Source of the DNA: Tabrizicola sp.
GTDB taxonomy: Bacteria; Pseudomonadota; Alphaproteobacteria; Rhodobacterales; Rhodobacteraceae
DNA: 49,601 nt
Assembly: GCA_016792685.1 (NCBI GenBank)
Contig: JAEULQ010000079.1
Span: 1-49,601, forward strand
Direction: 5' to 3'
Below the pieces are notes generated by a model. That model saw only the letters and a list, made by a program, of their open reading frames with translations. It did no database searches and was not told the DNA's origin. Every line of letters starts with the position of its first letter. Position 1 is the stretch's first letter. The translations under genes and the position numbers were made by a program. Positions 21,353-26,389 of the stretch are shown piece after piece.

Positions 21353-21796
21353 ATGAGCGACAGCGACCTCATCAAGCTCTACTCCACGCGTATTCTGGCG
21401 CTTGCGGCCGATATCCCGCATCACGGTCGCCTTTCTGCCCCGCAAGGCAGCGCCCGCCGCCGCTCGCCGCTCTGCGGCTCGACCGTCACGGCGGATGTCG
21501 TGGTGAAGGACGGCCGTATTGCCGACTTCGCCCAGGACGTGAAGGCCTGCGCTCTTGGCCAAGCCTCGGCGTCGGTGCTGGGATCGGTGGCGATTGGCCG
21601 GACACTTCCAGAGCTGCAGTCGGCCCGCGACGCCCTTCGCGCCATGCTGAAGGACGGAGGTCCAGTTCCATCTGCCCCGTTCGAGGCCTACGAAGTCCTG
21701 CTCCCCGCCCGCGACTACAAGAACCGCCACGCCTCGATCCTGCTGGCCCTGGAGGCGATCTGCGAGGCGACCGAGACTGCCCAGGCCGCCGCATAA
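21353..21796 (+). CDS. NifU/SufU-like iron-sulfur scaffold family protein, divergent
   Basis: 147 residues aligning with SufU/IscU scaffolds: Cys41 in SPLCGSTVT and Cys66 in KACALGQASAS correspond to the first two scaffold cysteines. However, the Asp after the first Cys-Gly (CGD) is Ser here, and the third cysteine site near 126-128 reads NRHASILL, with no Cys. A Cys at ~137 is outside the usual position. So two of three cysteines and not the key Asp remain. Such forms recur in alphaproteobacteria by my recollection; they may bind clusters or zinc differently. Upstream neighbour hisI is unrelated. The stop codon's A-run is also the T-tract of the minus-strand terminator that follows. Confidence 0.75.
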   Translation: MSDSDLIKLYSTRILALAADIPHHGRLSAPQGSARRRSPLCGSTVTADVVVKDGRIADFAQDVKACALGQASASVLGSVAIGRTLPELQSARDALRAMLKDGGPVPSAPFEAYEVLLPARDYKNRHASILLALEAICEATETAQAAA

Positions 21797-21828
21797 AAAA
21801 AACCGCCGCGCGTCAGGGACGGCGGCGG
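21795..21828 (-). terminator. Strong intrinsic terminator of the small SOS-box gene
   Basis: Read on the minus strand: CCGCCGC, CGTC, a 3-nt loop, GACG, a bulged C, GCGGCGG, then eight T (21795-21802). About 11 bp, nearly all GC. It lies 91 nt past the stop of the tiny membrane protein gene. No other gene is in 21797-21919. Confidence 0.85.
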
Positions 21829-21919
21829 CAGTAGCGCGTCTGGAAACGGCGGACGGAGAACCATGGCTCACATGGCGGGAAGACCGTCACCCTTGGGGGA
21901 CAGAGCGCGGGGCAGAAAC

Positions 21920-22054
21920 TCAGACGAGGCCAGGCATCGACAGCATGGCAAAGAGGAACACGAAAAGCGCGGCAAGGCCGACCAGATCCTCCACCGCGCC
22001 ACGCGGGGTGCTGGAGAGCAGGGTCTTCATGGCGTCTTTCATCGCGTCCTCCAT
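21920..22054 (-). CDS. Tiny single-span membrane protein with LexA- and CtrA-type sites upstream
   Basis: 44 residues from the ATG at 22054, or 40 from the ATG at 22042, which is favoured by a GGAGGA 4 nt before it. Residues ~1-18 are polar and amphipathic (EDAMKDAMKTLLSSTPRGAV), then one hydrophobic span (DLVGLAALFVFLFAMLSM) to the C-terminus, with no export cleavage site. The gene has its own 85-bp upstream region after recG, holding a GTTC-N7-GTTC box and a TTAACCAT half-site, and its own strong terminator. Small, single-span, SOS-controlled membrane proteins are known as division inhibitors (SidA of Caulobacter) or toxins (TisB); resemblance here is by size and setting only, not sequence. 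I do not recognise the family with certainty. Confidence 0.65.
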   Translation of the reverse strand: MEDAMKDAMKTLLSSTPRGAVEDLVGLAALFVFLFAMLSMPGLV

Positions 22055-22083
22055 GCTTGTTGCTGAATTGTTCTCATATTGCG

Positions 22084-22091
22084 TTAACCAT
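22084..22091 (+). promoter_or_regulatory. CtrA-type half-site TTAACCAT
   Basis: Exact match to the TTAACCAT octamer known for CtrA half-sites, about 30-40 bp upstream of the tiny membrane protein start. The same octamer occurs before ctrA. Not proof of binding. Confidence 0.4.
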
Positions 22092-22096
22092 GTAAA

Positions 22097-22111
22097 GAAC
22101 TTTTTAGGAAC
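22097..22111. promoter_or_regulatory. LexA (SOS) box candidate, GTTC-N7-GTTC
   Basis: Minus-strand GTTC-CTAAAAA-GTTC, the direct-repeat operator established for LexA in Rhodobacter sphaeroides and other alphaproteobacteria. It lies 43-57 bp before the tiny protein's first ATG, in promoter range. About one such match is expected by chance in a window this size, but its place in an 85-bp intergenic region is suggestive. Confidence 0.55.
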
Positions 22112-22139
22112 ATACGAGAACAAAGCCAGACTAAGGGGA

Positions 22140-26389
<4,250 letters not shown>

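What the first reader, a model, noticed from the sequence alone, without database searches (positions are those of the whole stretch)
21920..22139. Tiny membrane protein next to recG, possibly SOS-induced
A 40-44 residue protein with an amphipathic N-terminus and one hydrophobic span to its C-terminus has its own 85-bp control region and strong terminator. The upstream GTTC-CTAAAAA-GTTC matches the alphaproteobacterial LexA operator (known from Rhodobacter). Small SOS-induced membrane proteins act as division inhibitors (Caulobacter SidA) or toxins (TisB); I infer a similar role from size, topology, operator and recG neighbourhood, not from sequence similarity. By composition about one GAAC-N7-GAAC is expected in the window, so placement rather than presence is the evidence.
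Basis: partly seen in the sequence, partly recalled or inferred. Interest (0 to 1): 0.75.

Follow-up and report, generated by a model that had tools for sequence, protein, structure and literature searches.

The report
DNA-damage-linked micro-membrane-protein gene with structured RNA tail
Behind the DNA-repair gene recG, this bacterium and nearly all sampled members of its family carry an unnamed gene for a 40-residue membrane protein, with a DNA-damage-type switch in front and a conserved folded RNA tail behind, which makes it a good candidate for a damage checkpoint that I found nowhere described.

Summary
The ORF is real (median dN/dS about 0.23 in the genus): a 40-residue, one-span membrane protein starting at the second ATG. 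A profile finds it in 144 of 149 genomes sampled from the order (every row is of the window's own family), but in 5 of 289 sampled across the class, 4 of them same-family. It sits just after recG in 30 of 30 pattern-selected loci. GTTC-N7-GTTC precedes it in 30 of 30 genus loci and 30 of 31 protein-selected loci of other genera. The same box type precedes recA and lexA, so LexA control is likely. No credible Pfam, NCBIfam, PHROG or Rfam match was found. I infer an SOS transcript that makes a SidA-like divisome brake plus a 3' regulatory RNA. Neither function is shown, and a test of ccrM as RNA target was negative.

The parts
22118..22121 (-). additional upstream GTTC half-site, N6 from the box
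   Evidence: third GTTC at N6 in 30 of 32 genus and 144 of 170 other loci
   Evidence: 30 of 30 genus loci and 30 of 31 protein-selected loci of other genera; second half is AGTTC in 198 of 201 loci, off the recA/lexA consensus TGTTC-N6-TGTTC
22067..22096 (-). promoter: -35 TTTACA (22091-22096) and -10 AACAAT (22067-22072)
   Evidence: 9 of 12 consensus matches, 0.0 expected in shuffles of the region; -35 kept in 30 of 30 genus loci
22058..22073 (-). second LexA-like site GAACA-N6-CAACA overlapping the -10 and the probable start of transcription, in the orientation of the recA and lexA boxes
   Evidence: score 11.8 here; GAACA at this place in 31 of 32 genus and 167 of 170 other loci
22047..22052 (-). 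Shine-Dalgarno-like GGAGGA
   Evidence: sequence; GGA invariant and GGAG in most rows of the genus alignment
21920..22042 (-). ORF of a 40-aa single-span membrane protein, MKDAMKTLLSSTPRGAVEDLVGLAALFVFLFAMLSMPGLV, plus stop
   Evidence: dN/dS; hydropathy; AlphaFold2 model with helices 2-11 and 13-34
21795..21919 (-). conserved structured 3' UTR (about 125 nt here; median 169 nt in 45 UTRs of other genera) with CUGCCCC (21909-21915) and CUGUCCCCC (21895-21903)
21901..21909 (-). 5' arm of the outer helix of the 3' RNA (CGCGCUCUG)
   Evidence: 24 of 25 genus UTRs keep CGCGYUCUG..CAGA..GCGC; compensatory outer helix in other genera
21834..21842 (-). 3' arm of the outer helix (CAGACGCGC)
21795..21829 (-). 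intrinsic terminator GCCGCCGCCGUC..GACGCGCGGCGG followed by U8, overlapping the end of the convergent gene
   Evidence: fold; terminator arms of other genera pair better with their own partner in 56 of 76
22140..24224 (-). recG, the upstream neighbour
   Evidence: named from its sequence, not run through Pfam

Best explanation
A lineage-specific SOS gene. In undamaged cells LexA sits on a composite operator (TGTTC-N6-AGTTC at the -35 plus GAACA-N6-CAACA at the -10) and keeps the promoter shut. After DNA damage LexA is cleaved and a short mRNA of about 265 nt here is made. It is translated at once (short leader, GGAG) into a 40-residue inner-membrane protein: an amphipathic basic N-terminal helix inside the cell, one span with an invariant Asp and Gly at its cytoplasmic end, and a short LPGL-type tail outside. 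The protein most likely holds back the late divisome until repair is done, as SidA does in Caulobacter, without being known to be related to it. The 3' UTR folds into a conserved RNA that displays repeated C-rich motifs and ends in the terminator; it probably outlives or is cut from the mRNA and acts by base pairing. Shown by sequence: the protein, its conservation and position, the sites, the RNA fold. Inferred: LexA binding and induction (likely), membrane topology (likely), division inhibition (a guess from analogy), action of the RNA in trans (a guess from its form).
For: Protein: 31 of 32 same-genus genomes; profile 144 of 149 in the order sample, all rows same family, 138 of them at E <= 1e-4 by my count; 5 of 289 in the class sample; genus median dN/dS 0.23; D19 and G22 in 157 of 157, P37 in 154, no K, R, D or E after position 19. 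Promoter: box in 30 of 30 genus loci and 30 of 31 protein-selected loci of other genera; recA box in 26 of 27, lexA in 5 of 5; boxes at imuB, dnaE-like, uvrD and photolyase genes of this genome. Position: recG just upstream on the same strand in 30 of 30 pattern-selected loci. RNA: outer helix own -21.3 against swapped -14.2 kcal/mol, 105 of 113 better, negative control 47 of 113; CTGTCCC 50 against 1.65 in shuffles; motifs unpaired 0.73 against 0.42 for other C-rich stretches in 142 UTRs. Precedent: SidA, a 29-aa SOS-induced inner-membrane protein acting on FtsW (PMC4211646, passages).
Against: Each LexA-like site departs from the recA/lexA consensus at one informative base in nearly all loci (AGTTC in 198 of 201 upstream boxes; CAACA is the commonest second half downstream, GAACA only 5 of 174), so another GTTC-binding regulator is not excluded. 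The matrix scores alone prove little: shuffled promoters average near 0, but the best of 160 genus shuffles reaches 14.1 and of 850 others 16.7. The genome as a whole is not enriched in GTTC-N7-GTTC (114 against 139 for the reversed pattern). No binding, expression or phenotype data were found. No similarity to a known division inhibitor was tested.
Confidence: 0.45

Rival explanations
1. The RNA is the main product: the locus is an SOS-controlled regulatory RNA whose 3' half carries the function, and the 40-aa ORF is a secondary or regulatory reading frame.
For: The 3' RNA is structured with compensatory changes and repeated, mostly unpaired C-rich motifs in many genera.
Against: The ORF is under clear protein-level selection in the genus, with invariant D19 and G22 in 157 of 157, so the protein matters too.
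Confidence: 0.2
2. A membrane-active SOS toxin like TisB (recalled) that depolarises the membrane and promotes dormancy.
For: Size, single span and LexA-like control.
Against: Short leader, and no second conserved block that could be an antitoxin RNA promoter (genus alignment read by eye). Retention in 144 of 149 genomes of the family sample is unlike type I modules as I recall them. The span carries no charge after residue 19.
Confidence: 0.1
3. A small membrane adaptor in the damage response with another partner (a protease, transporter, DNA-uptake or gene-transfer-agent machinery) rather than the divisome.
For: Many small bitopic proteins are adaptors (recalled). The gene seems restricted to one family, in which LexA has been tied to gene transfer agents and CtrA (passages of PMC6473078).
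Against: Nothing specific points to such a partner.
Confidence: 0.2
4. The promoter is controlled by a GTTC-binding regulator other than LexA, or the conserved bases mainly serve RNA polymerase (A-tract and -35).
For: Consistent one-base deviation from the LexA consensus in each site; the extended string AAAGTTCTT after GTTCNNNN occurs at most once per genome, so other SOS genes do not share it.
Against: GTTC halves are kept where the spacer drifts: 5 of 6 loci lacking the extended pattern still have GTTC-N7-GTTC. The downstream site is a perfect GAACA-N6-GAACA in 5 of 174 loci (L066 and L069).
Confidence: 0.2

Closest known systems
SidA of Caulobacter crescentus (29 aa)
   Same: Tiny SOS-controlled inner-membrane protein in an alphaproteobacterium (passages of PMC4211646).
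   Different: Homology not tested with the SidA sequence; profile A2 rings in only one class genome outside the family, dubiously. Here 40 aa, next to recG, with a structured 3' RNA. FtsW binding untested.
DidA of Caulobacter (71 aa)
   Same: Small single-span damage-induced division inhibitor (passages).
   Different: DidA is SOS-independent (DriD) and acts on FtsN; here LexA-like sites.
YneA / SosA type SOS division inhibitors of Firmicutes
   Same: SOS-induced division inhibitors (search listing and abstract starts).
   Different: Different phylum; similarity not tested.
TisB/IstR-1 type I toxin-antitoxin (recalled)
   Same: LexA-controlled tiny membrane peptide.
   Different: No regulatory leader or antisense antitoxin seen by eye; a core chromosomal gene of one family, not a dispersed module.
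EcpR1 sRNA of Sinorhizobium meliloti
   Same: Widely conserved alphaproteobacterial stress RNA with a GC-rich loop motif; precedent for RNA control of the cell cycle (passages of PMC4414408).
   Different: Stand-alone sRNA behind divK-pleD in Rhizobiales; this RNA is the 3' UTR of a coding transcript and has different motifs.

Membership tests
LexA (SOS) regulon of the family | GTTC-N7-GTTC operator at the promoter | tested here: met
   30 of 30 genus loci, 30 of 31 protein-selected loci of other genera
LexA (SOS) regulon of the family | Match to the strict recA/lexA consensus TGTTC-N6-TGTTC | tested here: inconclusive
   two near-sites scoring 9.9 and 11.8 here against 20.6 (recA) and 20.2 (lexA); shuffled promoters average -0.2 in the genus but the best of 160 reaches 14.1
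LexA (SOS) regulon of the family | LexA-dependent induction by DNA damage | not testable with these tools
   no expression data held; lexA itself is in the genome
SOS-induced membrane division inhibitors (SidA-like in action) | Tiny protein with one membrane span | tested here: met
   (mean Kyte-Doolittle 2.09 over residues 20-38, no charged residue after 19)
SOS-induced membrane division inhibitors (SidA-like in action) | Blocks division through FtsW, FtsI or FtsN | not testable with these tools
   needs cells
SidA family by descent | Sequence homology to SidA | not tested
Type I toxin-antitoxin (TisB/IstR type) | Antisense or regulatory RNA that blocks toxin translation; long leader | tested here: inconclusive
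   short leader with GGAG and no other conserved block in the genus alignment, but judged by eye only
Known RNA families | Rfam model over its gathering score at the 3' UTR | tested here: not met
   (window stretch and 20 of the fetched loci); sub-threshold matches only, e.g. Ysr141 20-31 bits against 196, in the cases I checked (L100, L120) outside the UTR
Known protein families | Pfam or NCBIfam match over its cut-off, or a credible PHROG match | tested here: not met
   best E-values 0.11-0.19

The most novel reading that the evidence does not exclude
A two-armed DNA-damage checkpoint in one transcript: LexA cleavage releases an mRNA whose 40-aa product brakes the late divisome while its 3' RNA, through CUGUCCC and CUGCCUC-type motifs, silences cell-cycle mRNAs. 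The candidate I looked at is ccrM, whose ribosome-binding region in many loci resembles GGGRCAGAGGCAG and is complementary to those motifs by eye. A duplex-energy test did not support ccrM, so only the general form (divisome brake plus riboregulator) is argued.
Probability: 0.22. Interest if true: 0.9.

Novelty: new variant of a known kind. Interest (0 to 1): 0.72.

Why it matters
[quoted passage not shown] A gene kept in 144 of 149 sampled genomes of the family, under LexA-like sites, is an obvious candidate and can be tested directly. A structured RNA fused to it would add a kind of SOS output, protein plus 3' riboregulator in one transcript, that I did not see described for this group.

Tried and rejected
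Presence of the box as evidence: rejected; 1 found against 1.47 expected in the window, and 114 against 139 for the reversed pattern genome-wide.

The 44-aa start: rejected; the first ATG is replaced in 7 of 30 genus loci.

Own-genome box hits: I fetched 18 of the 114 counted places (only part of them is listed), picked by eye for AT-rich spacers, so the recA, imuB, dnaE-like, uvrD and photolyase neighbours are a picked sample, and most of the rest of the 18 are not SOS genes by my reading. Pfam gave 0 families for the protein of L118 that I read as ImuA. The uvrD box scores only 7.9 on the matrix.

ccrM as RNA target: ccrM appeared among 18 own-genome hits of GGGACAGA..ATG. Duplex energies of leader with 3' UTR were no better than with shuffled leaders: median z -0.3 in 17 genus pairs and -0.27 in 9 others, 1 below -1.65 in each group; 5 of 63 window ORF leaders pair at least as well as ccrM. 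RNAduplex allows large loops, so the test is blunt, but it is negative. GGGACAG before ATG is about 4-fold over the reversed control in the window's genome (54 against 14) but also in G094 outside the family (35 against 9), so it is not specific; in two relatives part of the hits is a dispersed intergenic repeat.

A genus version of the arm-swap test (own -10.72, swapped -11.05, 7 of 15) shows no covariation; the arms were cut with an anchor that does not fit the genus, and the helix there is nearly invariant (24 of 25), so it says nothing either way.

Plasmid search with one family protein: no match. Fold search was not run, since a 40-residue helix would give meaningless matches. No covariance model was built; the plain alignment A3 does not align the hairpins.

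Rows dropped and a mend: one search kept 203 non-redundant loci of 228 with an ORF, of 231 tried. Six of the genus loci had been dropped there as exact duplicates of loci under other ids, so the non-genus groups held six genus loci plus, in some of them, two with a genus-type 3' UTR (L061, of the genus, and L074). One search recounts without them, and its numbers are the ones used; the older ones (31 of 32, 108 of 118, 76 of 98, 57 of 78, 0.72) were nearly the same. Pattern-selected loci contain the box by construction and are excluded from the 30 of 31. The dubious class hit (L164) was not examined further. One search read the minus-strand loci on the wrong strand and was replaced.

Full report
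What is there. On the minus strand, 28 bp after the recG stop codon, begins GTTCCTAAAAAGTTC read towards the gene, directly upstream of a promoter (TTTACA, 18 nt, AACAAT), a GGAG and an ORF that ends at 21920. Across 30 genus loci the first ATG is lost in 7, while the second start codon is kept in 30 (GTG in L014), so the protein is 40 aa.

Is it a gene? Yes. With the protein as query, 31 of 32 same-genus genomes match; the miss, G010, is 59% complete. With a 25-sequence profile 122 of 295 family genomes match. With a 50-sequence profile 144 of 149 genomes of the order sample match at E <= 0.01, 138 of them at 1e-4 or better by my count; every row of that sample is of the window's own family, so it says nothing of other families, and 4 of the 5 misses are one genus, g24. 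In the class sample 5 of 289 match: four of the same family and one dubious hit at E 0.005 inside a 503-residue frame. Genus pN/pS is 0.34 and median dN/dS 0.23 over 365 unsaturated pairs of 378; in the rest of the family median dN/dS is 0.48 over 573 of 861 pairs, near saturation. In 157 forty-residue members D19 and G22 are invariant, P37 is kept in 154, no residue after 19 is charged, and the N-terminal stretch has a hydrophobic moment of 0.485 against 0.322 shuffled. AlphaFold2 gives helices 2-11 and 13-34 (mean pLDDT 81.9).

Position. In 30 of 30 loci chosen by promoter pattern, the recG match ends 19-146 bp upstream on the same strand. The convergent neighbour (NifU-like in my reading, not tested) is found in most but not all of them.

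Operator. The string GTTCYTAAAAAGTTCTTTACA is in 30 of 30 genus loci, and GTTC-N7-GTTC precedes the ORF in 30 of 31 protein-selected loci of other genera. In six loci lacking the extended pattern, five still have GTTC-N7-GTTC. Is it LexA? In this genome the same box type lies just before or at the start of recA, imuB, dnaE-like, uvrD and photolyase genes, and before lexA. Across the family it precedes recA in 26 of 27 usable loci; L383 has none and three of the 30 could not be placed. These boxes give a stricter consensus, TGTTC-N6-TGTTC. Shuffled promoters average -0.2 (genus) and 0.4 (others), but the best of 160 and 850 shuffles reach 14.1 and 16.7, so the scores alone do not prove a site; conservation does the work (with fewer shuffles gave maxima of 3.8 and 11.0, 7.5). 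The second element's GAACA is present in 31 of 32 genus and 167 of 170 other loci, and a further GTTC lies N6 upstream in 30 of 32 and 144 of 170. I read this as a composite LexA operator of two near-sites. The steady one-base departures (AGTTC in 198 of 201; mostly CAACA) are the main doubt.

The 3' UTR is conserved in the genus (TTCTGCCCCGCGCTCTGTCCCCC nearly invariant). In 45 UTRs from other genera CTGTCCC occurs 50 times against 1.65 in dinucleotide shuffles, CTGCCTG 55 against 1.95, and TGCCTGTCC 24 against 0.175. In 142 UTRs these motifs are unpaired with mean probability 0.73, against 0.42 for other C-rich stretches. Single-sequence folds of 21 UTRs mostly show an outer helix (GCG.UCUCGUG with CACGAGA..CGC), internal hairpins and the terminator. 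A swap test asked whether each genome's own arms pair better than arms taken from others. Outer helix: -21.3 own against -14.2 swapped, 105 of 113. First hairpin: -9.6 against -6.6, 75 of 95. Terminator as positive control: 56 of 76. Unrelated internal segment as negative control: 47 of 113. So the fold is maintained by compensatory change. Rfam has no match over its cut-off.

How it most likely works. LexA holds the promoter; damage releases a short mRNA; the 40-aa protein enters the inner membrane N-in and slows the late divisome; the 3' RNA acts by base pairing. The LexA step is likely, the membrane step likely, the divisome and RNA steps inferred from analogy only. SidA (29 aa, SOS, FtsW) and DidA show that tiny membrane proteins do this in Caulobacter (passages of PMC4211646); EcpR1 shows that an alphaproteobacterial stress RNA can act on cell-cycle mRNAs (passages of PMC4414408). 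A test of ccrM as a target of the RNA was negative.

Is it in print? Searches of the open library showed me no paper on this gene or RNA. Of the Dinoroseobacter LexA paper PMC6473078 I saw passages; recG does not occur in its main text. Of the Paracoccus sRNA paper PMC5107571 I saw passages; recG does not occur there either, but its supplementary tables were not seen, so an sRNA at this place could be listed there. The Rhodobacter capsulatus lexA paper is not held. Most subscription papers are missing, so novelty is provisional.

Verdict.

Noticed in passing
L313-L342 and L343-L362, ccrM leaders (window genome G000:C60 near 23376): The ccrM start region carries a GACTCATC-like element and a GGGRCAGAGGCAGA-like stretch just before the ATG in many of the loci that could be read (several loci were not placed by the script).
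   Followed up: partly
L284, L289, L296, L301, L304, L310 (genomes G007 and G016): A dispersed repeat GGATATTTGGGGACAGAAAATG, often preceded by CCTCCGGCGGG, occurs several times in two same-genus genomes and does not look like a gene leader.
   Followed up: no
genus g24 (G054, G411, G438, G455): Four of the five genomes without a detectable copy belong to one genus (two others of it ring only weakly), which suggests a lineage-specific loss or divergence.
   Followed up: no
L066, L069, L148 promoters: In a few loci the element over the -10 is a perfect GAACA-N6-GAACA LexA box.
   Followed up: yes
window 21795-21829: The transcript's terminator overlaps the end of the convergent gene (ORF end 21796), so one hairpin may serve both strands.
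   Followed up: no
3' UTR, genus versus family: The genus version of the 3' RNA is shorter (median 119 against 169 nt) and has CUGCCCC in place of CUGCCUG.
   Followed up: partly
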